This document shows positions 3,131 to 34,346 of a DNA stretch of 53,705 nt, one piece after another; within the stretch, counting starts at the first letter, position 1, and every line of letters begins with the position of its first letter. The notes beneath the pieces are model-generated. The model saw only the letters and a list, made by a program, of their open reading frames with translations, was not told where the DNA came from and made no database searches. The stretch spans positions 1 through 53,705 of IMG/VR virus record IMGVR_UViG_3300009154_000070. One strand, written 5' to 3'. The translations under genes and the position numbers were made by a program. The DNA comes from a virus.

Positions 3131-3133
3131 GTG

Positions 3134-3573
3134 TGGATCTGGAGGGATTCGAACCCTCGTCTCCATCAGTTAATTAATTGAATTCATTCACAGGCTTAGC
3201 ACTGTTTGTGCTGGAAAGATCCCAAACACATTCTGCACCGTAGGTTTGTACTAGAGGTATGAGGGGCTACGTAAATACGTGTCAGCCAAACAATCTCTTG
3301 CACCGTAATGGGACCTTTCGGCCACTCCACCATCACATTTTGAGAAAACGCGAAAAACAGGTTTGCAACTTTCTGTTCCTGGGCAGTTACCGCACCGTTG
3401 GACTAGGCAGCTATCGCTTGCTTAGTTGTTACAGGAGCACCAAATTTATTGATGGCTTCCCATACGTTGGCTTTTTTGCCGTTTAGATTTTGTATAGAGG
3501 ATTAAAGAGTTTCCGATACTAACTCTGCCTGCATTCAAAGAACTACGCCTGCGGATCAATTCCAGTCAGACCC
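3134..3573 (-). ncRNA. ssrA: Transfer-messenger RNA (tmRNA), phage-encoded
   Basis: About 440 nt before CCA addition. The 5' end GGGUCUG pairs with the 3' end CAGAUCC over 7 bp and contains the G3-U70 wobble that specifies alanine charging, with discriminator A at 3134. A D-loop-like ACUGGAAUUGAU follows, and the T-arm is GAGGG-UUCGAAU-CCCUC. The long P2 helix is visible: UUGAAUGCAGGC (3527-3538) pairs with GCCUGU (3190-3195) plus AUUCAA (3178-3183). The reading frame at 3403-3480 starts most likely at GGC, begins GKKANVWEAI, ends TTKQAIAA and stops at UAG. The AIAA end fits the usual ALAA-type degron, though 25 residues is long for a tag. CCA is not encoded (ACAC follows). It rescues stalled ribosomes and marks their products for proteolysis. 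The resume codon is the least certain part. Confidence 0.9.
3403..3480 (-). other. tmRNA tag-peptide reading frame
   Basis: Inside the tmRNA, a 25-codon frame begins GKKANVWEAI, continues through NKFGAPV and ends TTKQAIAA, then UAG at 3403-3405. The hydrophobic Ala-Ile-Ala-Ala terminus is what ClpXP-type proteases read. The start at GGC is inferred from the A-rich sequence before it and the Gly-initiated tags of Bacteroidetes. An AAC or CUA start one or two codons upstream cannot be excluded. Confidence 0.7.
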
Positions 3574-3598
3574 ATTATATTTATCTAAGGAAGAACTT

Positions 3599-3660
3599 AA
3601 AAAAACGGGATTGCTTTGTTTATCTTAAATTGTTGATTTTTGATTTGCTGAAACAATCCC
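3599..3660 (-). ncRNA. Candidate structured RNA element B, ending as a terminator
   Basis: On the minus strand GGGATTG (3654-3660) and CAATCCC (3607-3613) form a perfect 7-bp closing stem around a 40-base, A-rich interior, followed by a run of seven T. It shares the sequence TTTCAGCAAA and following A-rich pattern with element A just upstream. Either a long-loop terminator of the DUF2828 gene or the 3' part of a small stable RNA. Confidence 0.45.
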
Positions 3661-3671
3661 TTAAAAATTAC

Positions 3672-3757
3672 AGAATCGGGTTTTGGTGAGAAGGATACGA
3701 GTATCGTTTCTCGATGATTGAATTGTATAGTTTTTTGGTTTTTGCTGAACCGATTCT
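3672..3757 (-). ncRNA. Candidate structured RNA element A
   Basis: On the minus strand AGAATCGG (3750-3757) pairs with CCGATTCT (3672-3679), enclosing an interior hairpin GATAC-TC-GTATC. The 5' part GGTTCAGCAAAAACC matches element B (GTTTCAGCAAATCAA). It lies between the DUF2828/Ro-like gene and the tmRNA gene, with no open frame. End-to-end pairing with an open middle is reminiscent of Y RNAs, but this is by-eye folding only. Confidence 0.4.
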
Positions 3758-3790
3758 TTGATTATTATAGTTGAATTCATAAAAAAGTTT

Positions 3791-5212
3791 CTAGATAGAA
3801 ACCTCTTTATATCTTGGTAAATTTATAGTATCAAACATAATAGAGTTTGGATCTATGCTCTTCCCTCCTAATACTGATGCCATTATAGAAGGTGAGAATC
3901 CACTAATTAAAGCTGTTCCAGTTTCATCGAATCTAACAGGAACGTTATTTCCTCTACTTTGAACATTCCAGAATATAACAGAAGGCATTTGGTAACCCTT
4001 CTCCTCATATTTAGCTCTTATCATTTCCATAGCAGAAAGACTTCTTTCTCCATTTATAGCCGAATCAAATTCCATATCTGAAATGATCAGGATCTTTTTA
4101 GGCATTTCTTTCTCATCGATCTGATGAAGAGATGCTTGCCTTAATATTTGTGAAAAAACAGATTCAAGATCAGTGTTCATACCCCATTCAGAAAACTGAA
4201 GCTGGTTGTATCTTTCCAATAAAGAACCTTTTAATTTCTGCAATTGAGGGGTTTCGGAGAACGTAATAAAAGAATCTTTAAAAGCACCTTCATTTCTTTC
4301 AGAAATATAAAGACCTAATGAGATGGAAACGTCAAGACAAGATAAAGATCCTTTATTGTTAACCGGGGTCGACATTGATCCCGAAACATCAACAACAGGA
4401 AGTATCATTTCATTAGATCCTTCTAAATAGTTCGGTAATGCTTTCCATTGCTCATTAGCAACCTCTTCTATTCCCCTTTTAAGTGACTTGATAACATCAT
4501 AAGGATAAACTGCAGATGCATTAATCTTAACCTTCTTATTAGGATCTGTTGAGGTTAGATCGGTAACGTATTGACCATATCTTTCGCCATCGTTCCTAAG
4601 GAAAGCTTTTTGATATCTAGCAGCAGCTAAAGATGGAACCTGTGAATATTCGATCTCCTTCCAATTCTTAGAGCACATACTGGTTTCAATAGCCTTAGTT
4701 GCTCCAACCAATATTTTTCTATACTCTTTTGGGATTAATCCCATATGCTTTCTAAGTGTATTTGCGATTGGACCTTTTCTAGGCATCCACTTTGAACAAA
4801 GACCATTACCTAAACGAAGAGCGTCAGAGATCAATTCTAATGCACGTGATTCTGCATTTGTTCCAATCAACTCTAACACATCGTCCCATCTTCCAAATTC
4901 CGGAATAAGGTGAATATTCTTTATGACTGCACCTGGATGATTCTCTGCAAGATATTTGATACAAACTCTAAAAACTCTTCTTTCCCCTGCACCTCCTCTA
5001 ACATCTCTAGACCAGAAAAGAATCCTCATAGCATCTAAAGGTGACTCTAGAAAAGCCAAAGAAAATTGGCGAACAATATCTTTCTCCTCAGCTGCTCTGT
5101 ATGCACCTATCTTAAAAAATAGATCCAAGCAGTTGTTAAGAGAGCTTGAATTTGTTACCATTCCATTTTCGGTAACTGTATCTTTTTGTTGCAAAGCAGA
5201 GATTAAGTCCAT
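3791..5212 (-). CDS. DUF2828/vWA-domain protein (Ro60/TROVE-like)
   Basis: 473 residues. The N-terminal two thirds match the DUF2828 (mimivirus L728-like) helical-repeat family: TENGMVTNSSSLNNCLDLF, SPLDAMRILFWSRDVRGGAGERR and IPEFGRWDDVLELIG. The C-terminal third is a von Willebrand A domain with an intact MIDAS: DVSGSMS near residue 275, then MNTDLES and IISDMEFD. This HEAT-like ring plus vWA layout parallels Ro60/Rsr, which binds Y RNAs and misfolded RNAs. The gene is followed at once by two structured non-coding elements and a tmRNA, which supports an RNA-related job. The family match is good; RNA binding is inferred, since DUF2828 proteins are poorly characterised. Confidence 0.8.
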   Translation of the reverse strand: MDLISALQQKDTVTENGMVTNSSSLNNCLDLFFKIGAYRAAEEKDIVRQFSLAFLESPLDAMRILFWSRDVRGGAGERRVFRVCIKYLAENHPGAVIKNIHLIPEFGRWDDVLELIGTNAESRALELISDALRLGNGLCSKWMPRKGPIANTLRKHMGLIPKEYRKILVGATKAIETSMCSKNWKEIEYSQVPSLAAARYQKAFLRNDGERYGQYVTDLTSTDPNKKVKINASAVYPYDVIKSLKRGIEEVANEQWKALPNYLEGSNEMILPVVDVSGSMSTPVNNKGSLSCLDVSISLGLYISERNEGAFKDSFITFSETPQLQKLKGSLLERYNQLQFSEWGMNTDLESVFSQILRQASLHQIDEKEMPKKILIISDMEFDSAINGERSLSAMEMIRAKYEEKGYQMPSVIFWNVQSRGNNVPVRFDETGTALISGFSPSIMASVLGGKSIDPNSIMFDTINLPRYKEVSI

Positions 5213-6061: not shown

Positions 6062-7522
6062 TTATTTTGAAAAGTAAATTCCTGCGTGTTCTTTCCCCTT
6101 AGCGCTTTTTGGACTATAGTCATCTTCAGGTAAATCTGTAACAACAAAGGCTTTGTTTGGATTAACGATCATCCCTAGAGTTCTCATTAATATACGATTA
6201 GCTAAGAATGGTGTACTTTTACCAGTTCTGTCTATAGGAGAAACCCTAACAGCTGGAATTTTAACATCGTTAAAAACTATATCCATTTCTATAACTGGTC
6301 TTCTATCTCTACTCTGTCCAACCTCTGCATCTGAATATCCTATAATATCGCTAGAGAACTTCTTGTCTCCGCAAGTCCAAATTAATTTCTTACCTTTTTC
6401 CTCCACACTGTCAGCATGAATGCTACAAGAGGTAGATCCATTTCCGGTATCAAATTTTGCTACCACCTTTCCAATACCAGGAACTTCTAGCATTTCAAGA
6501 TATCCAGCTTCTATAGTAGAAAAGCTCCAGTTTTCAGAATCTGTAATATAATCTAAAACGTCATTAACGATTGGTTTACCAATTGCTTTAGAAATACCTT
6601 CTGTCCCAGGTGAAGAGTTAACCTCAAGAATATAAGGCTCTTTTGTTTTCTTGTCAATCATGATATCAACACCACACCAGTGACACCCAACTGCATTGGA
6701 AGCTCTGCAAGCTATATCTCTAATTTTATCGTCAATCTCAAACTTGGTAACTTGACCACCTAGAGAGTAGTTTGTTCTGAAGTCTTTTTTAACTGCAGAT
6801 CTTTTCATAGAACCAAGTATAATGCAGTTGTCTTTAGCTGGAGTGATTGGATCAAATTTCTTAACTATAACCTGGATTCTCAAATCAAAATTAGAATCAA
6901 TCTTTTCTTGAATTAGAATCTCACTAGATTCGTCCAGTTTTCTGATGGTCTGATAAACTGATTTATATGAAGCATATGAATCAACAATAGAAACCCCAAT
7001 ACCTTGGGTACCGGACAAAAGCTTCATAACTATGGGGAAATTACCTCCAATTTCTTCAAGAGCGCTATCCAATGCATCTTCATTAGGAACTAAGGCATAT
7101 TTAGGAACTGGTAGTCCTGCACTAGCTAGAACGTGTGAAGTAACAAACTTATTTTCGCAAATTTCGATAGATTCCAAGCTGTTTATTGTGAAATATCTAG
7201 ATTCCTCCAGTTCTGTCATAATTTGCTTTGTATAAGAATTAGAGATTACCCCTCTTCTTGGGACTATCACGGTATTGGTTGGGTCGATTGATACATTTTC
7301 TTTTTCTGACTTTAAAACGTGCCCGTTGTACACTTTCTCAAGGATCACATTGTTTATATCGACAGTATGACACTCTAGTCCTCTCTTTTTACAAACCTTC
7401 TCAAATGACTTCGATGTTTTGCTACCTGCTGAATTACCCGTTAAAACTACCACTTTTATTTTCTTTTCTGTAGAGGCTTCGTTTAAAAACCCCCAGAAAT
7501 CTAGTACATTTTCAACGCTCAT
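6062..7522 (-). CDS. RimK-type ATP-grasp ligase fused to a RimB-like retropepsin-fold domain
   Basis: 486 residues. Residues 20-335 form an ATP-grasp amino-acid ligase: GGNFPIVMKLLSGTQGIGVS binds ATP, EILIQEKIDSNFDLRIQV follows, and PYILEVNSSPGTEGI carries the Mg-binding Glu/Asn. RimK adds glutamates to ribosomal protein S6. Residues 345-475 match the RimB/ATP-dependent zinc protease family, with the retropepsin-type AKFDTGNGSTSCSIHADS and later RRPVIEMD and FLANRILMRTLGM. These are usually separate proteins. The N-terminus (VLDFWGFLNEASTEKK) precedes the catalytic fold and resembles the targeting-like motif of other proteins here. Plausibly it modifies the host ribosome or another protein tail and trims it. 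The substrate is unknown. Confidence 0.8.
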   Translation of the reverse strand: MSVENVLDFWGFLNEASTEKKIKVVVLTGNSAGSKTSKSFEKVCKKRGLECHTVDINNVILEKVYNGHVLKSEKENVSIDPTNTVIVPRRGVISNSYTKQIMTELEESRYFTINSLESIEICENKFVTSHVLASAGLPVPKYALVPNEDALDSALEEIGGNFPIVMKLLSGTQGIGVSIVDSYASYKSVYQTIRKLDESSEILIQEKIDSNFDLRIQVIVKKFDPITPAKDNCIILGSMKRSAVKKDFRTNYSLGGQVTKFEIDDKIRDIACRASNAVGCHWCGVDIMIDKKTKEPYILEVNSSPGTEGISKAIGKPIVNDVLDYITDSENWSFSTIEAGYLEMLEVPGIGKVVAKFDTGNGSTSCSIHADSVEEKGKKLIWTCGDKKFSSDIIGYSDAEVGQSRDRRPVIEMDIVFNDVKIPAVRVSPIDRTGKSTPFLANRILMRTLGMIVNPNKAFVVTDLPEDDYSPKSAKGKEHAGIYFSK

Positions 7523-7805: not shown

Positions 7806-7986
7806 CGCTTTCGGATTTTTTCACATCTTCCCAAATTTCATCAAGATATCTATGCGATTCTGAAGGTCCTGTCAGGACTTCGGATTTACCAACGATAAAT
7901 TTAATAAAATCTTTAGGGGTTTCAAATTTTTCTCTTATTTTCTTAAGCTCTTCCAGCTCAGGAAGGTGTCTTCTGTTAAATCCCAT
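7786..7986 (-). CDS. Small hypothetical protein
   Basis: 66 residues, charged and helical (LPELEELKKIREKFETPKDF). Its ATG overlaps the TAA stop of the DNA polymerase C-terminal half as TAATG, implying translational coupling with the polymerase. No recognised family; possibly a polymerase-associated small protein by position alone. Confidence 0.55.
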   Translation of the reverse strand: MGFNRRHLPELEELKKIREKFETPKDFIKFIVGKSEVLTGPSESHRYLDEIWEDVKKSESDEGCNR

Positions 7987-9134
7987 TAAAATAGTGCGTT
8001 TATCATGAATAAATTTGGACTAATTGGATTATATCCCATAACCTCAATGAATCTATTTATGGGATCCAAGATTGTTTTAGTAAACTGCTCATCATAATCG
8101 ATAGGAGGTGCATATTCATACGGAAACGTTCCTTGTGCATAGGCGAAAACGTTATTATCAGCAGCAGATTTAATCTTAACAAAATAATAGTTTACCTTTT
8201 CGCTACTCCTTATCAAAGCATATTTATCTTTATACTTAGAATTATTAAGAAGGTAATTGTGATAAGCAGAGGCTCTAACATGGATAGGACAAGCTTTGGC
8301 AACCTCTAGAGCTGTTGTGTCATTTAGGATAAACTTCTCATAGTTGTTAACATTAACAGAAGCTGAGATGTTTCTGGGCTCTTGTATCTTAAACTCCTTC
8401 TTTATTTCCTTTAGCTCCTTTACAAATTCCCTTATGTTAAATTTCTTACCTTTCGAGAAAATAAACTTTGTTAGGTATTCGAGCTTTTGTCTTACGAATG
8501 GAGGAGTTCCACCTTTAATCATTTCAACACCCACAATCTTCATTCGATCTAAGGGATCAATATGAACACCATCCTCATAGACCAGATTTGACACGTACTT
8601 CTTTTTACCTAAGAATATGCCATTAAGTGCAATATTCTCAAGTTCAAAATCCATATAGTTGTCTGTGTTCCATTTCTTGGAGTAGATGTCAAAGCAGTTC
8701 TTTAAATATGACTTAAGTCTATATTCATTGATCTTAAGAATTAAATCTTTAGGGTCACCTGTCCAATCGCATGAAGTTACAACCTCTTGAAACGTGACAT
8801 AGTTAGAATCAGTGTCACCGTATACAGTAAGGGGTCTAACAACTTTTTTAACAGAGGTGATCCCGAGCTTTTCATGAAGTTCTGTATCTACATGCCAGAA
8901 CTCGTTAAAATATTTGAAAATAATCTTCTCAGAATATTTAATCAAATCCTGACCCTGCAGAGTAACAGCCTCAGCTACATCAGTATTGAAACAAACGAAC
9001 CAGTTATTACCAATCGCTCCATATATAGAGTTCATTGTTAATTTGACCGCTTGCTCTTCATTCTTCAACTCATTTTTTAATGAGATCAGAGATTCTATTT
9101 TCTCCTTTATTTCCTTTATTTCGGATTCTGTCAT
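7986..9134 (-). CDS. DNA polymerase family B, C-terminal half (motifs B and C)
   Basis: 382 residues from the ATG at 9132-9134. An in-frame TTG at 9149 would add five residues, but overlaps the clamp gene. The N-terminus is a charged helix, followed at once by polymerase motif B (KLTMNSIYGAIGN) and then motif C (YGDTDSNYV) with its catalytic aspartates. A thumb-like C-terminus follows. Motif A and the exonuclease are absent and are found in the protein at 32946-34346. The cut falls within the fingers helices between motifs A and B, so both parts must assemble for activity. It follows the clamp gene by 4 bases. The T4-like relative RM378 of Rhodothermus also has a divided polymerase. Confidence 0.88.
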   Translation of the reverse strand: MTESEIKEIKEKIESLISLKNELKNEEQAVKLTMNSIYGAIGNNWFVCFNTDVAEAVTLQGQDLIKYSEKIIFKYFNEFWHVDTELHEKLGITSVKKVVRPLTVYGDTDSNYVTFQEVVTSCDWTGDPKDLILKINEYRLKSYLKNCFDIYSKKWNTDNYMDFELENIALNGIFLGKKKYVSNLVYEDGVHIDPLDRMKIVGVEMIKGGTPPFVRQKLEYLTKFIFSKGKKFNIREFVKELKEIKKEFKIQEPRNISASVNVNNYEKFILNDTTALEVAKACPIHVRASAYHNYLLNNSKYKDKYALIRSSEKVNYYFVKIKSAADNNVFAYAQGTFPYEYAPPIDYDEQFTKTILDPINRFIEVMGYNPISPNLFMINALF

Positions 9135-9138
9135 ATTG

Positions 9139-9906
9139 TTATTTTTCAACTAAGCCGATTGCAATGGAAGTAGACGATTGATCTGAGATTAGAACTAATC
9201 TATTTCCGTGAATAAAAACCTGACATGTTTCTGCTTCCATATAGGAAAGCTGATTCTTGTAGATATTAGAGGTTGCTTCTTCAGCATCTTTGATTGAGAT
9301 TTCAGAAGGACTAAGATTTAATTTATATCTGAAAGAATCCCCTTTTGCATGTGCACTCTTGGTGTTAACCTCAAAAACTAGAATTTCCTCTGAGTTTGTT
9401 TCCAATCCGCACAATGAAAGAACTGTTGTGAAATCCGATTGATAGATTTTAAAGTTGGATAATGCATCATCCTTGCTGTGAACCATTGAGAGAATTTTAT
9501 CATCAACATAGGAAAGCAAAGAAAGATCTGCGCATCTCAACTTGATGTTAAGTGAAGCTGAGGTAAGCTTAATCTCTGTTGAAATTGATTGATCATCTAC
9601 TGTGTCCACATTTAATTCAATGTAAACATCTTCCTCTGGTCTAAAGTGTTTAAAAGCTTCGATCAAACGGGTAATGTCTATTATACCAACTTTAACTCTA
9701 TTGTCGACATATTTGGTCCAGTCAGCTTCTCCTTCCAAAACATCAGATAAAGAAACGCTAGAGTATTTCATAACGGCTTTATCTGGTGTGTGAACCTTAC
9801 TGAATAGCTTATCCTTGGTTAGCTCTAAGATAACACTTTTGTCAACTGACTTTAATCTTTTAAGAAATGTGATTAAATTCTGAATGCTTGTAATTCTTAA
9901 TTTCAT
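9139..9906 (-). CDS. Sliding-clamp candidate (gp45/PCNA-like)
   Basis: 255 residues, somewhat longer than T4 gp45. Sequence identity to known clamps is weak by eye, but the alternating beta pattern, the acidic character, the segment VKVGIIDITRLIEAFKHF (like the gp45 IYDLNGFLGILSLV region) and the position directly before the polymerase half all fit a processivity clamp. Its product would ring DNA and tether the split polymerase. Alternative: another beta-rich DNA-binding protein. Structure prediction would settle it. Confidence 0.6.
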   Translation of the reverse strand: MKLRITSIQNLITFLKRLKSVDKSVILELTKDKLFSKVHTPDKAVMKYSSVSLSDVLEGEADWTKYVDNRVKVGIIDITRLIEAFKHFRPEEDVYIELNVDTVDDQSISTEIKLTSASLNIKLRCADLSLLSYVDDKILSMVHSKDDALSNFKIYQSDFTTVLSLCGLETNSEEILVFEVNTKSAHAKGDSFRYKLNLSPSEISIKDAEEATSNIYKNQLSYMEAETCQVFIHGNRLVLISDQSSTSIAIGLVEK

Positions 9907-22687: not shown

Positions 22688-23836
22688 TTAGTGGGAATCT
22701 CCAATATCATGTTTCTCTCCGTAGATTAGATAATCTGGATTGATCACCTTGGCAATCTTATTACGTACACCGTGTACATGCTTCACTACAACACCCTCGT
22801 GTGGTACTTTTGTCCCATTTATAAAGTTATTAAATACAAACTTGTCTTGAATCTCTTGTGACCACTTACCAACATAAAGTATATCCGCATGAGATAGTTC
22901 CAAATCATTTTCTATAACCATCTTTGCAAGAAGAGTTGATAAATATTCTCCGTCCCACATAACATCAAATCCACAAAATTTAATATCATCTAACCCGTAA
23001 TCATATCCTTTCTGAATTCCTTTACCGTAAATTTCGCCATATAAAACAACTCCCGAACCTACTTCATCCGACATTTTCTCCTTAACAAACTTCCATAATT
23101 TCTCTTTGATCTTGTATTTGTCAGCAATCTCATACCATACATTCGTATCGTAGAATCCTTGTGAGTCTGATCCCTTCTCAACATTATGCGAACCAACAAC
23201 AAACTCATATTCAGACCATTTCCAATCAGGCTTTATCTTTCTTGCAAGTGCTAGCTTTATCTTGTCTAATAGAGACAATTTTGTTTTTCTTACTATACCA
23301 TATCTTGCGTTTGTACCATGTATCTTTCTAGTAATTTGAACCAGATCTTCCTCAGTGAACATTCCAGTAACATTCTTCATATTAGGAAACTTGTAATACA
23401 CAAGGAAATTTGGATTATCTTGATATCTTATTTTTCTACCTGAACCAAGGGTTATTTGTTTAACCGGGGGTTCATACTTGAAGATGTTTAACTCCTTCAT
23501 CATATCTCTACCCTCGTAATATTCGTTAGGGGTTCCTTTATAAGAAATAAACTTTAAAGGTATTATCAAACACTCACTATACACACCTCTTAACTTTACC
23601 GTTTTAACCCTCTGTCCCCTGCGGAGATAGTTGGTTACGTTCATATCATCGGATAAATCTTGGGGTATAACCGCATCGGTGGTTGCAACAACAACCAAAT
23701 CCCCAACATTATATTCCCCCTTCTGTATGATGCAATTCCATCCACCGATGCGGGCTTGTTCTATTTTATCTGCACCCGGAATGTTTTCAATTACATCTAT
23801 TTTTGCTACATAGCAGCAGCTGTTTACATTTTGCAT
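22688..23836 (-). CDS. RNA ligase, Rnl5 (DRB0094/DraRnl) family
   Basis: 382 residues from the ATG at 23836; the longer frame overlaps the upstream gene. The N-terminal domain (1-110) is the OB-type module typical of Rnl5: KIDVIENIPGADKIEQARIG, VGDLVVV, LRGVYSECLIIPL. The nucleotidyltransferase domain then has motif I KIHGTN with the adenylated Lys, EFVVGSHN, VVLYGEIYGKGIQKGY, FCGFDVMWDGEYLS and motif IV EGVVVKHV. DraRnl seals 3'-OH/5'-PO4 nicks with RNA on the 3'-OH side. It probably counters host RNA damage together with the adjacent kinase and phosphoesterase. Confidence 0.9.
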   Translation of the reverse strand: MQNVNSCCYVAKIDVIENIPGADKIEQARIGGWNCIIQKGEYNVGDLVVVATTDAVIPQDLSDDMNVTNYLRRGQRVKTVKLRGVYSECLIIPLKFISYKGTPNEYYEGRDMMKELNIFKYEPPVKQITLGSGRKIRYQDNPNFLVYYKFPNMKNVTGMFTEEDLVQITRKIHGTNARYGIVRKTKLSLLDKIKLALARKIKPDWKWSEYEFVVGSHNVEKGSDSQGFYDTNVWYEIADKYKIKEKLWKFVKEKMSDEVGSGVVLYGEIYGKGIQKGYDYGLDDIKFCGFDVMWDGEYLSTLLAKMVIENDLELSHADILYVGKWSQEIQDKFVFNNFINGTKVPHEGVVVKHVHGVRNKIAKVINPDYLIYGEKHDIGDSH

Positions 23837-23846
23837 TTTTAATTTT

Positions 23847-24458
23847 TTAAGGCATGTATAAAATAGTAGGATTATCTTTATGGATGTCCACTTTTGCTTT
23901 GTTGTCTGCAAGAAACTGGGTCATTCTTTGAATGTTAAACGGTCTCGTAATTAAATGATAACCATTCTTGGTTGGAATCATTTCCATCATAGGTTCTCTG
24001 CCGGTCTCTTCCTGAAGATCCTTTATCCTTTGATGCATAACTCCTAAAAATGCTTTACGTCCTTCGAAGTCTTTCCAGTCAATGTCAACAATCCACTTCT
24101 TATCATCGTCACCATGAAACTCACCTGAGACCGAGCTAAAGGCAAATCTAACCGCCTTGTAATCTTCAGACATAATAATATCAGTTACTCGCTTTAGCAT
24201 TTGAAATGCTGTCTTCTTTGCACTTCTTTTGTTTATTCTGAAGTAAGCTCTTGCATTATTAGTATCACACGTTTGGATAATAGAATCCATTATGGCATCA
24301 AAGTGTGCTAGGTTATAAATAAAAAGGTCATCAATAACAACCATATCTTTAGCAAGCCCAGGATTATCCTTTCTCCTCTTCAGGATTTCAAGAAAATAAT
24401 AGGTGTCCGAATCTGAGAAATCCAGGAGTGGTCTAATTAGATCGAAGTTGTTTATCAT
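23847..24458 (-). CDS. Hypothetical protein, possible primase-polymerase (AEP) fold
   Basis: 203 residues. Two segments recall archaeo-eukaryotic primases: KKWIVDIDWKDFEG (hhhDhD metal site) and PTKNGYHLITRPFN (G-x-H strand). FRINKRSAKKTAFQML lies before them. Zinc site and helicase are absent, so if the fold is right it is a minimal catalytic core. It sits 10 bases upstream of the RNA ligase gene and could be a partner in repair. The match is from motifs only and is uncertain. Confidence 0.6.
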   Translation of the reverse strand: MINNFDLIRPLLDFSDSDTYYFLEILKRRKDNPGLAKDMVVIDDLFIYNLAHFDAIMDSIIQTCDTNNARAYFRINKRSAKKTAFQMLKRVTDIIMSEDYKAVRFAFSSVSGEFHGDDDKKWIVDIDWKDFEGRKAFLGVMHQRIKDLQEETGREPMMEMIPTKNGYHLITRPFNIQRMTQFLADNKAKVDIHKDNPTILYMP

Positions 24459-25752: not shown

Positions 25753-26286
25753 CTATTTGGTAGGAACGTAAGTAACCTGTTCTATCTGCTCTGGTAGAAT
25801 GCAGATAGTGTAATCAGAAGCTAGTTCAGGTTGTCTCTTAGTTTTAATATAAAATGATCTGGGGATGGCGAAAACGCATTCAGCTCCGTCTTTTTGGCCA
25901 ACCCCAGTCACTACAAATTCTACGTCGGTGAAAATATTGATAGCATCCGTATAATCATCTTCTGGTCTGTCGTCTCTTTCTGTTCTGCTTCCATAGATGG
26001 CATATTTTCTTTTAGCCATTCTTTCTCTTTCTCTTTCCGCTTCTCTTTTAATATACTCTGGAGCATTTTTACCTTGACTAGGTAATATAGTCTCAACAAC
26101 AACCATTTCAATCTCGCCACTAGCCTGAGATCCTAAGAAAATGTTGATAATTTCGGTTAGATCTTCAGTAGGCACACTCATTTCAGGCTTTGAATCATGG
26201 CCTCTGTAATGTGCTTCGTTGTAAACTGGCACTTTGGCTTCGTTTAAGCTAGATTCATATGATTCAAATTCCAGAAGGTGTTTCAT
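25753..26286 (-). CDS. Hypothetical protein with capsid-targeting-like N-terminus
   Basis: 177 residues. It opens MKHLLEFESYESSLNEAKVP, the closest match in this window to the T4 leader MKTYQEFIAEA, with Glu-Ala at the expected cleavage point. The middle has a highly charged helix (EYIKREAERERERMAKRK) and the C-terminal third is beta-rich (FVVTGVGQKDGAECVFAIPR). No known domain. Likely a packaged internal protein if the leader is functional. Confidence 0.65.
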   Translation of the reverse strand: MKHLLEFESYESSLNEAKVPVYNEAHYRGHDSKPEMSVPTEDLTEIINIFLGSQASGEIEMVVVETILPSQGKNAPEYIKREAERERERMAKRKYAIYGSRTERDDRPEDDYTDAINIFTDVEFVVTGVGQKDGAECVFAIPRSFYIKTKRQPELASDYTICILPEQIEQVTYVPTK

Positions 26287-26291
26287 GCTAA

Positions 26292-27551
26292 TTATCTTTT
26301 TCCATTATATATCGCTGGATTCTGAGCTTTTTTGGCTTGCTCCACTTGTTTAGCTTTCTCTTTAGCTGCAGCTTGATAGAATTCTAGGTTCTTTTTAAGC
26401 CTATCCCTTTCAAAATCTGGAATACCGTTGAAAAATTCAGATTTAACGATGGCAGTAGTTTTTTCTAAAGCAATCTCTGGGTTTCCAATATAATGTGCAG
26501 CCAATGAGTACTCATCAAGAAGTCTCCATTGCCAGATCTCAGGTTCAACGAAAAGAATATCTGATGTTCCTCTAGTTTTAATAGCTACGTCTCCATAGGC
26601 AAAAGCGATCAAGAATCTTTTCTGTTCTCTTAACTTTCTCATAACGTGGAATGCACACTCCAATCTCGATGGTCTGTATTCCCATGCCTTTGAGTAAAGA
26701 TTAACAACCTCATCGATTGGATAGTTTAATCTCTCCTTTATTTTAGCCTCCATGTACATCGAATAGTAGACTTCTTCTTCCCAGCCACCCATCTCAGCTC
26801 TTTTAACATAAGCTTCTATCGACTTCTCATATTGCTCAGAATCTCTATAACTTTGAGCTAGATAGAAAACGTATCTGGCATTATCGGGTTCTTTTTCTAA
26901 AGCCTCTTCTAGAATTTTAGCGTCATTAGAGTATTTCTCTTGAAGACTCGATGCTCTCTTAAGAGGCGAGATGTCCGCAATAACGTGAGAATGCGGAATT
27001 GTGCCCTGGATTAGGTTTTGCTTATCTGTATGTAGATATTCATGAAGAACCCCTTTATAACACCAATCAACATCAGATCTAACTACCTGAACACGATGGT
27101 ATTGAAGAGCCCCTAATCTGTACATGATCTGGTAAGCATCTGGGGTCTTATCCAAACCAGCAAAAGGATTTCTTCCTGGCATTTCTGCAATGAAAGTGTC
27201 ATCGGCATCTATAATCCATCTGTAATCACATTTACCCTTAGCCAACTCAAGACTCTCTGTTCTGTTAACTTCGAAATTTACCCATGGACGCTCGTGAAGT
27301 TCACCAGGAATTCCAAGTTTTTCCATTGTTGAATTAATAACCTCTTTGGTCTTATCCTTAGATCCGGTGTCGACAATTACCCAATATGAAATATACGGAG
27401 CAACTGCTGAAAGACATTTTTCGATAGTGTCCTCCTCATCCTTAACTATCATAACCAAGCAAAGCTCAATTGTTTGCTTCAATTCCTGCATCTTTACAAT
27501 AGGCTTAGGAATACCCATTGGGATAGATTTCTTTTGATTCTTTTTGCTCAT
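26292..27551 (-). CDS. Family 2 glycosyltransferase with TPR-like C-terminus
   Basis: 419 residues. Residues 30-230 are a GT-A catalytic domain: LCLVMIVKDEEDTIEKCL, VIVDTGSKDKTKEVI and IIDADDTF with the D-x-D metal site. Residues 235-400 form helical repeats of TPR type (DNARYVFYLAQSYRDSEQYE, then AFAYGDVAIKT). This architecture matches bacterial glycosyltransferases of the SunS/WcaA-like set, which modify proteins or surface glycans. It might decorate virion proteins, modified DNA bases or the host envelope. The acceptor is unknown. Confidence 0.88.
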   Translation of the reverse strand: MSKKNQKKSIPMGIPKPIVKMQELKQTIELCLVMIVKDEEDTIEKCLSAVAPYISYWVIVDTGSKDKTKEVINSTMEKLGIPGELHERPWVNFEVNRTESLELAKGKCDYRWIIDADDTFIAEMPGRNPFAGLDKTPDAYQIMYRLGALQYHRVQVVRSDVDWCYKGVLHEYLHTDKQNLIQGTIPHSHVIADISPLKRASSLQEKYSNDAKILEEALEKEPDNARYVFYLAQSYRDSEQYEKSIEAYVKRAEMGGWEEEVYYSMYMEAKIKERLNYPIDEVVNLYSKAWEYRPSRLECAFHVMRKLREQKRFLIAFAYGDVAIKTRGTSDILFVEPEIWQWRLLDEYSLAAHYIGNPEIALEKTTAIVKSEFFNGIPDFERDRLKKNLEFYQAAAKEKAKQVEQAKKAQNPAIYNGKR

Positions 27552-32945: not shown

Positions 32946-34346
32946 TTATTTATTTTCTATACTTCTTTGTAACTGATCTATTTCGATCTGAAGGGCAAGC
33001 ATTCGATCTTTTGTTTTTCTCCTTTTCGAGTAGAGATCCTTGATTATTGTTCTGATAATAGGATTTTCCTCGTCTGATCCAAAATAAGCACCCGAGGCTG
33101 TTCGTGTCCATTCCTCTTTAGGGTTAACCGGATCCTTACCTTTATATGACTCTGGAGAAATGCCCCATTGAACCATGGTATTGGGATAGAGCGAAGCAAA
33201 GTCATAACAAGCAATCCATTCATGAAGTCCGGTTATTGGCTCTTTTACATATCCACCTGCAAATTTAACATGAACCTCATCCTTTTTTTCTTGAACGAAA
33301 ATCTGCTTTCGTTCTAAGAATTTTCTCAACATCATGATCTCTGTTGACCAAACTGGAGAAAGGGATCTATTTATCTCCACACCTGCGATTTGAGCTATCT
33401 TGAAGAAGGTCTGCATGGTTTTGAGCTTTTGATCGATATAGTGAACAAGAGCACAGTCAACTGCGTTATAGTAAATGAAATCTTCAAAATTGGATTGGTA
33501 AAGATCTCTAAGTGTTCCGTTGTATTCTATTTTTTTAAGACCTATAGCTTTATTTGCAACATAATCTAATCGGTTACTTTCTTTGATTTTAATAACTCTG
33601 TCCCATTTTTTATAGATCTCCAGGTAATCGACCATTAGTAGATGCGCGGGTAGCTGTTCCTTTCCTAGAAGATATCCTCCGGGTGAAATGATTTTTGGAT
33701 CTATGCCTAATTTTTTAGCTCTGTTTAGCAAATAAGGCCAGTCATATCCTAACCAGTTCCATCCAGTAATTAAAGGCATTTTAGGACCCAGATCTTTAAA
33801 AAACGTGTAAACTAGATCATACTCAGTTTCGAATTGTTTATATTTAAATGACCACTCATCACCAGTTTTTTCGAAGTATGTGTTGAGCTTCTTGTAGATG
33901 CTTGCTTGCTGTTCAGGGGTCAAAGGGTCTAGTCCTAAAAGGATAAGCTTGCATTTATCTGTTGCAATACCTATAGATAGGATCCTATTCTTTGCATTAG
34001 CAGTATCCAAAGCTGCTGCCATCTCCTCTGTAATCTCAACCTCAATATCGACAAAATATTTTTTAGGTGTTTGGAATTCCCAAAGTGGAGCGGTTAGTTC
34101 TTTTGGGGCTTCCTCTAAAATCTGAGCTATTCTATATTTGTCATATCTTTCAGTTTTCACTTTCTTCACAGGTTCACCCGTCCAAGTTTTCCACTCTCTA
34201 TCTTTAGACGAATTACTGGGGGTGCACTTCTCCCAAACAAATCTTTCTGATTCTGGGATAGGTACTGTTATGAATGCTAGATCTCCGTCTTTGGTGAAAT
34301 GTGAAACTTTTAAAGATTTGCCTTGATTCTCTATGTCTACGATCAT
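32946..34346 (-). CDS. DNA polymerase family B, N-terminal half (exonuclease and motif A)
   Basis: 466 residues. It carries the 3'-5' exonuclease motifs: Exo I KYFVDIEVEI, Exo II GWNWLGYDWPYL and Exo III YYNAVDCALV, then polymerase motif A CYDFASLYPNTMVQWGISP. It ends right after the fingers start (IIKDLYSKRRKTKDRM) with a charged helix, before motif B. Motifs B and C are in the protein at 7986-9134, 24 kb away. There is no trace of the C-terminal part after the stop at 32946, so this is a true split and not a frameshift. Proofreading and palm are thus on a different chain from the other catalytic Asp pair. Confidence 0.93.
   Translation of the reverse strand: MIVDIENQGKSLKVSHFTKDGDLAFITVPIPESERFVWEKCTPSNSSKDREWKTWTGEPVKKVKTERYDKYRIAQILEEAPKELTAPLWEFQTPKKYFVDIEVEITEEMAAALDTANAKNRILSIGIATDKCKLILLGLDPLTPEQQASIYKKLNTYFEKTGDEWSFKYKQFETEYDLVYTFFKDLGPKMPLITGWNWLGYDWPYLLNRAKKLGIDPKIISPGGYLLGKEQLPAHLLMVDYLEIYKKWDRVIKIKESNRLDYVANKAIGLKKIEYNGTLRDLYQSNFEDFIYYNAVDCALVHYIDQKLKTMQTFFKIAQIAGVEINRSLSPVWSTEIMMLRKFLERKQIFVQEKKDEVHVKFAGGYVKEPITGLHEWIACYDFASLYPNTMVQWGISPESYKGKDPVNPKEEWTRTASGAYFGSDEENPIIRTIIKDLYSKRRKTKDRMLALQIEIDQLQRSIENK

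What the first reader, a model, noticed from the sequence alone, without database searches (positions are those of the whole stretch)
3574..5212. Ro60-like protein next to two related structured RNA elements and a tmRNA: a candidate phage RNA-surveillance cassette
The DUF2828/vWA protein has the layout of Ro60/Rsr. Immediately downstream lie two elements (3599-3660, 3672-3757) that each close with a 7-8 bp end stem and share TTCAGCAAA plus an A-rich run, then tmRNA. Bacterial Rsr genes are often near Y RNA genes. If the elements are Y RNA-like, the phage would carry its own Ro/Y RNA plus ribosome rescue in one locus, which I do not know to have been described.
Basis: inference. Interest (0 to 1): 0.85.

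Follow-up and report, generated by a model that had tools for sequence, protein, structure and literature searches.

The report
Phage Ro60-like protein with Y-like RNAs
Next to its Ro60-like RNA-binding protein gene this phage carries two small structured RNAs of a widespread, apparently uncatalogued family that looks like the protein's own "Y RNA", and whose signature unexpectedly matches the orphan Class I RNAs of social amoebae.

Summary
On the minus strand lie a DUF2828/vWA gene (5212-3791), RNA elements B (3759-3668) and A (3663-3603), and a tmRNA (3573-3131). The elements belong to a family I could define: AAG-stem-U(A/U)CAGCAA...stem-CUG. A covariance model built without the window finds both (E 1.5e-6, 0.0016). 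In 53 DUF2828 phage records it gives 77 hits, all on the DUF2828 strand, 38 within 500 nt. Among 29 related records picked by topoisomerase, it hits 3 of 4 with the gene's vWA domain and 0 of 25 without (E<=0.01). The same RNA lies beside DUF2828 in bacterial and archaeal assemblies, and inside phage tRNA arrays. Some members carry YrlA-like permuted tRNA domains. The predicted protein fold best matches Ro60/TROVE. A Ro/Y-like RNP is therefore well supported; binding is not shown. The signature is that of Dictyostelium Class I RNAs, reported as dictyostelid-only: Rfam's amoeba model hits DUF2828 phages (33/33 on the gene strand). Phage Ro proteins and Y RNAs were proposed before; I found no earlier description of this RNA family or its Class I link. 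A joint cassette with tmRNA is plausible but unproven.

The parts
3791..5212 (-). DUF2828 + DUF7788 (vWA) protein, 473 aa, Ro60-like predicted fold
   Evidence: Pfam PF11443 E 7.6e-33 and PF25043 E 1.8e-50; PHROG 850 'RNA-binding protein'; model pLDDT 82, top PDB matches TROVE/Ro60
3668..3759 (-). Element B: end stem AGAAUCGG/CCGAUUCU, UUCAGCAAA, extra internal hairpin, 3' end CUGU
   Evidence: R1 model built without the window: E 0.0016, 24.2 bits; z -2.65
3603..3663 (-). Element A: minimal form, end stem GGGAUUGU/GCAAUCCC, UUCAGCAAA, A-rich loop
   Evidence: R1: E 1.5e-6, 36.5 bits, E 0.0011 in a full-sensitivity scan; z -3.85; Rfam RF01414 15.7 bits, below cut-off
3131..3573 (-). tmRNA
   Evidence: Rfam RF00023, 68.3 bits against a cut-off of 47
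3403..3480 (-). tmRNA tag reading frame GKKANVWEAINKFGAPVTTKQAIAA*; exact resume codon not determined
   Evidence: translation; core NVW(D/E)AIN.FG conserved in L023 and L084

Best explanation
Elements A and B are small RNAs that act as the Y RNA-like ligands of the neighbouring DUF2828 protein, which has a Ro60-type fold (helical ring plus vWA). Proposed mechanism: the protein grips the terminal 7-bp stem plus the single-stranded U(A/U)CAGCAA beside it, as Ro60 grips the lower stem of Y RNAs. The distal part is an exchangeable module (A-rich loop in A, hairpin in B, permuted tRNA domain in relatives) that gates the ring or tethers partner enzymes, so that the RNP can capture ends of damaged or misfolded RNA during infection. 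The adjacent tmRNA adds ribosome rescue to the same stable-RNA cluster. Shown here: the RNAs form a covarying family that tracks the gene across phages and bacterial and archaeal assemblies, and the predicted protein fold is Ro60-like. Inferred: transcription in this phage, binding, the gate/tether role, and any cooperation with tmRNA.
For: Strand-specific recurrence beside DUF2828: 59 hits against 1 on the other strand and 0.8 in shuffles. Covarying 7-bp stem in fixed register with the motif. The held-out window elements are found by R1. Co-occurrence in a set not chosen by DUF2828: 3/4 against 0/25, p 0.001. Bacterial and archaeal assemblies: the 12 best R1 hits are all on the gene strand. 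Copies in tRNA arrays packed between tRNA genes. YrlA-like permuted tRNA domains inside the same end stem. Ro60/TROVE are the top fold matches. MIDAS residues D275, S277, S279, T347, D379 invariant.
Against: No expression or binding data for this phage. Element stems were a selection criterion, which inflates the percentage paired, and R1 was trained near the gene. Several DUF2828 phages (KVP40, Aegeus, pEa_SNUABM_50, F86) gave no R1 hit. No TROVE profile match in any of 32 homologues. In CKA15 the most transcribed region is not one of these elements.
Confidence: 0.75

Rival explanations
1. The elements are transcription terminators or processing hairpins at the end of the DUF2828 transcript and before the tmRNA.
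For: Element A's closing stem is followed by GTTTTTTT, and both elements lie between two transcription units.
Against: The loop is about 40 nt; no terminator-like site is found there. Most family members have no T-run after CUG. They occur upstream of the gene in many lineages and inside tRNA arrays, and keep a loop-side CAGCA sequence that a terminator does not need.
Confidence: 0.05
2. The elements are cis-acting mRNA elements by which the DUF2828 protein or a ligand regulates its own transcript.
For: They often lie in the untranslated regions next to the gene; one Vibrio phage match overlaps the gene's start (L021 3954-4080).
Against: Half of the R1 hits are more than 5 kb away, many in tRNA arrays; the position switches between upstream and downstream across lineages.
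Confidence: 0.08
3. They are independent phage RNAs that merely share a stable-RNA cluster with DUF2828, tRNAs and tmRNA, with no role with the protein.
For: Many copies sit in tRNA arrays away from the gene; tmRNA and tRNAs cluster here too.
Against: No hit at E<=0.01 in 25 related records without the gene's vWA domain. They recur beside DUF2828 in bacterial, archaeal and unrelated phage lineages. The protein's predicted fold is that of a Y RNA-binding protein.
Confidence: 0.1

Closest known systems
Dictyostelid Class I RNAs (Rfam RF01414; Kjellin et al. 2021, PMC7919456)
   Same: End stem joining the 5' and 3' ends, start AAG, end CUGU, UUACAGCAA beside the 5' arm, about 60 nt, variable loop, many genes per genome. 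The Rfam model hits phage elements down to E 3.4e-6 per genome, all 33 hits at E<0.01 on the DUF2828 strand.
   Different: Eukaryotic, with a DUSE promoter; reported only in dictyostelids; the known direct binder is the RRM protein Rnp1A. No phage element passes Rfam's cut-off (best 36.1 against 41.5 bits). Presence of DUF2828 in dictyostelids was not checked.
Bacterial YrlA Y RNA (Rfam RF02553) with Rsr
   Same: RNA ends form the stem; some relatives hold a circularly permuted tRNA domain (E 4e-11 to 2e-8); partner is a Ro-fold protein.
   Different: Different end-stem sequence (YrlA consensus ggCgaAUGC.../...cUuGucGccg); the window elements lack the tRNA domain and do not match the model; the partner is DUF2828, not TROVE.
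Vertebrate Ro60 with Y RNAs
   Same: Full-length predicted fold match of the protein to Ro60 (1yvp, 1yvr); RNA with a terminal stem and variable distal part.
   Different: About 15% identity, no TROVE profile match; the Y RNA stem sequence is different (my own knowledge of Y RNAs).
Listeria phage CKA15 putative Rsr/Y RNA pair (PMC12282133)
   Same: Its DUF2828 protein CKA15_055 was recognised as Rsr-like by HHpred and abundant non-coding RNAs were suggested to be Y RNAs; elements of this family lie directly upstream of that gene.
   Different: That paper gives no motif, structure or family, and its most transcribed region (26,236-26,727) holds none of these elements.

Membership tests
Ro60/TROVE protein family | TROVE sequence profile match | tested here: not met
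   No TROVE hit in the window protein or 31 homologues; all 32 match DUF2828 and DUF7788
Ro60/TROVE protein family | Helical ring plus vWA fold | tested here: met
   Foldseek against PDB: 9kop E 4.6e-10, 1yvp 6.2e-8, 1yvr 8.2e-8, TM 0.52-0.60; next hit 2.5e-3. Based on a predicted model (pLDDT 82)
Ro60/TROVE protein family | MIDAS metal site in the vWA domain | tested here: met
   D275-x-S277-x-S279, T347 and D379 invariant in 32 sequences
Ro60/TROVE protein family | Binds Y RNA | not testable with these tools
   Needs EMSA or CLIP
YrlA Y RNA (RF02553) | Covariance-model match | tested here: not met
   No match in the window at E<=5
YrlA Y RNA (RF02553) | End stem plus permuted tRNA domain | tested here: inconclusive
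   End stem met; tRNA domain absent in A and B but present in relatives
Dictyostelid Class I RNA (RF01414) | Covariance-model score over Rfam cut-off | tested here: not met
   Element A 15.7 bits against 41.5; best phage member 36.1
Dictyostelid Class I RNA (RF01414) | 11-nt motif positions T3, C6, C9, A10, A11 beside the 5' arm | tested here: met
   Element A 5/5 (UGUUUCAGCAA); element B 4/5 (CGGUUCAGCAA); direct reading against PMC7919456
Dictyostelid Class I RNA (RF01414) | Ends AAG ... CUGU with a closing stem | tested here: met
   B: AAG...CUGU; A: AAG...CCGU with a compensated pair; family AG 93-95%, CU 93-95%, G 100%
Dictyostelid Class I RNA (RF01414) | DUSE promoter element | not tested
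   A dictyostelid promoter element; not expected in a phage
tmRNA (RF00023) | Covariance-model match over cut-off and a tag frame | tested here: met
   68.3 against 47 bits; tag frame ending AIAA; ARAGORN negative

The most novel reading that the evidence does not exclude
Dictyostelium Class I RNAs and these phage, bacterial and archaeal RNAs are one family: the cognate Y RNAs of DUF2828-type Ro proteins, an ancient RNP present in phages and in all three domains. It takes minimal, hairpin, permuted-tRNA and tRNA-embedded forms, and would explain the orphan amoeba RNAs.
Probability: 0.45. Interest if true: 0.92.

Novelty: new variant of a known kind. Interest (0 to 1): 0.83.

Why it matters
It gives a concrete, searchable RNA ligand candidate for a protein family known only as DUF2828 or 'RNA-binding protein' and found in 682 annotated phage records. 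It offers a sequence-level lead on a major orphan RNA class of social amoebae. It makes phage-encoded RNA quality control directly testable: one protein, two RNAs and one tmRNA in a compact locus. The series of forms (minimal RNA, permuted tRNA, tRNA with the hairpin in place of the anticodon arm) bears on how YrlA-type tRNA mimics arose.

Tried and rejected
blastn of the 701-nt RNA region against phages: no match. Exact S13 motif in IMG/VR: none. SNORA12, MESTIT1 and other Rfam matches on the window elements: far below cut-off, taken as chance. YrlA membership of the window elements: rejected. Terminator reading: rejected (see rivals). A weak RF01414 hit in T4 (132052-132103, E 0.0024) lacks the AAG...CUG ends and R1 does not report it, so it is taken as chance; it warns that RF01414 E-values are somewhat optimistic in AT-rich phages. 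B's internal hairpin gained no covariation support from four relatives. The idea that CKA15's most abundant RNA (26,236-26,727) is the same RNA is not supported: no element was found there. A first alignment of untrimmed elements split the 3' arm, so trimmed, anchored segments were used. Chen 2014 and Sim & Wolin 2018 on bacterial Y RNAs were not in the library, so they are known here only through citing papers.

Full report
WHAT IS THERE. The window is a 53.7-kb virus record. On its minus strand the order is: RimK-like ATP-grasp gene, two small ORFs, DUF2828 gene (5212-3791), element B, element A, tmRNA (3573-3131). TTCAGCAAA occurs exactly twice in the window, once in each element. Both elements have an 8-pair end stem; A folds clearly better than shuffles (z -3.85), B less so (z -2.65). 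The tmRNA is real by Rfam. Its tag frame ends in AIAA, and its coding core NVW(D/E)AIN.FG is conserved in L023 and L084.

THE RNA FAMILY. Eighty DUF2828 loci were fetched from IMG/VR. Scanning them for T(T/A)CAGCA plus a closing stem gives 59 hits on the gene strand, 1 on the other strand and 0.8 in dinucleotide shuffles; 39 of the 80 loci have at least one. Fifty-seven non-redundant elements, window left out, align without a gap: AAAGGAUnnn-U(A/U)CAGCAA ... nnnAUCCUG. C14, G16, C17, A18 and G44 are invariant. All seven stem pairs change on both sides somewhere, with up to four Watson-Crick types per position; shifting the partner by one column drops the pairing from 91% to about 42%. Stems were a selection criterion, so the percentage is inflated.

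INDEPENDENT TESTS. (1) Model R1, built without the window, finds element A at E 1.5e-6 and B at 0.0016. A full-sensitivity local scan of the window scores A lower, E 0.0011, and reports B only as a partial match at E 2.9. (2) Over 53 DUF2828 phage records R1 gives 77 hits at E<=0.01, all on the gene strand, 38 within 500 nt where 2.4 are expected. Part of this reflects training near the gene, and many such phages are coded mostly on one strand. (3) In 29 records chosen by topoisomerase instead, hits at E<=0.01 occur in 3 of the 4 with DUF7788 (the fourth has the gene cut at the contig edge) and in none of 25 without; p 0.001. At E<=0.05 one record without the gene is also hit. G055 and G056 look like close relatives, so the counts are not all independent, and records may be fragments. 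(4) Five phages used as DUF2828-free controls: best E 0.4; that they lack the gene is from my own knowledge. (5) Thirty-three DUF2828 loci from bacterial and archaeal assemblies: the 12 best R1 hits are all on the gene strand and mostly within 650 nt upstream of the gene; the pattern search gives 36 against 4. Some of these contigs may be phage. (6) Copies far from the gene lie as tight units between tRNA genes, for example between tRNA-Ile and tRNA-Arg with gaps of a few bases, as expected of stable RNA genes and not of terminators.

FORMS. About half of the members are 40-70 nt long. Others insert a hairpin (window B), a circularly permuted tRNA-like domain as in YrlA (L009 5679-5803, L015 5979-6095, L013, L019, L092, L093), or unknown domains of 100-150 nt. 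In Cronobacter S13, Citrobacter Ci1 and Aeromonas Ahp1 and Aeh1, 'tRNAs' of 113-122 nt near the gene carry the same element in place of the anticodon arm. There the element is itself permuted: the hairpin loop reads CUGU-C-AAG (Ahp1 CAUCCUGUCAAGGAUG), which is the 3' end joined to the 5' end of the free form. This is read from the sequence; how these RNAs are processed is unknown.

THE PROTEIN. DUF2828/DUF7788 has no TROVE match by sequence. The predicted model's only strong full-length PDB matches are TROVE/Ro60 structures (9kop 4.6e-10, 1yvp 6.2e-8, 1yvr 8.2e-8; next 2.5e-3). MIDAS residues are invariant. So it looks like a Ro protein by fold, while sequence membership of the TROVE family is not met.

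LINK TO CLASS I RNAs. Rfam RF01414 flagged element A unprompted, although not significantly by itself. Dictyostelid Class I RNAs start AAG, end CUGU, have an end stem and an 11-nt motif beside the 5' arm (Rfam consensus CCUUACAGCAA), and were reported as unique to dictyostelids (PMC7919456). The amoeba-trained model finds phage elements at E as low as 3.4e-6. All 33 hits at E<0.01 are on the DUF2828 strand and 11 lie within 700 nt of the gene, where 1.5 are expected. In the topoisomerase-selected set its three best hits fall in DUF7788-bearing phages. None passes Rfam's cut-off, and a T4 hit at 0.0024 shows that the E-values are optimistic. Homology and convergence onto one binding motif cannot be separated here.

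PRIOR ART. Ro-like proteins in phages are known (annotations; jumbo-phage review PMC7824862). Y RNAs in mycobacteriophages and a Ro/Y pair in Listeria phage CKA15 have been reported or proposed (PMC12282133). In CKA15 elements of this family sit immediately upstream of CKA15_055, whose product was detected in virions. I found no description of this RNA family, its motif or the Class I link, but the library holds open-access papers only.

MECHANISM. Most likely the stem plus CAGCAA strand is the protein grip and the rest is an exchangeable gate or tether, giving a phage RNP that captures aberrant RNA ends. This follows from what is established for Ro60 and Rsr (my own knowledge, and PMC12282133) and is inference here. 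tmRNA lies directly or shortly after the elements in close relatives (L025, L023, L084), but only 16 of 45 records have one above cut-off, so a joint surveillance unit is plausible, not shown. The window also encodes an RNA ligase, a possible downstream enzyme.

Noticed in passing
window 7986-9149 and 32946-34346: Family B DNA polymerase is split into two genes about 24 kb apart: the C-terminal part at 7986-9149 and the N-terminal part at 32946-34346.
   Followed up: no
window 6062-7522: RimK-like ATP-grasp ligase encoded close upstream of DUF2828, on the same strand.
   Followed up: no
window 22688-23911: RNA ligase (PHROG 968, E 7e-59) in the same phage, a candidate partner for RNA repair.
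   Followed up: no
L003 4856-5098, L006 5982-6095, L007 8328-8441, L009 5994-6107, L011 8184-8305: Genes annotated as long or pseudo tRNAs (Ser, Asp, Val CAC, OTHER) near DUF2828 carry the element in place of the anticodon arm, so they are probably not decoding tRNAs.
   Followed up: partly
L002 2006-2343: A permuted alpha-type tmRNA, tag ANDNNAYGAFALAA, lies about 1.6 kb upstream of another phage's DUF2828 gene.
   Followed up: no
L090 3556-3746, L094 4470-4626, L097 1713-1878, L099 4480-4635, L101 6356-6512: Longer elements of 150-190 nt have the same end stem and motif but an unidentified distal domain.
   Followed up: no
L128 2547-2728, L136 2771-2901, L119 2509-3898: The same elements lie beside DUF2828 in Methanobrevibacter, Gastranaerophilales and Clostridiales assemblies.
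   Followed up: partly
L021 3954-4080: In Vibrio phage F86 a motif with half a stem (AGACATTTTACAGCA) overlaps the start of the DUF2828 gene; it could be autoregulatory or chance.
   Followed up: no
L147 (contig IMGVR_UViG_3300010334_000030): A 141-kb contig has a topoisomerase 100% identical to the window's but gave no DUF7788 or R1 match; it may simply not cover that region.
   Followed up: partly
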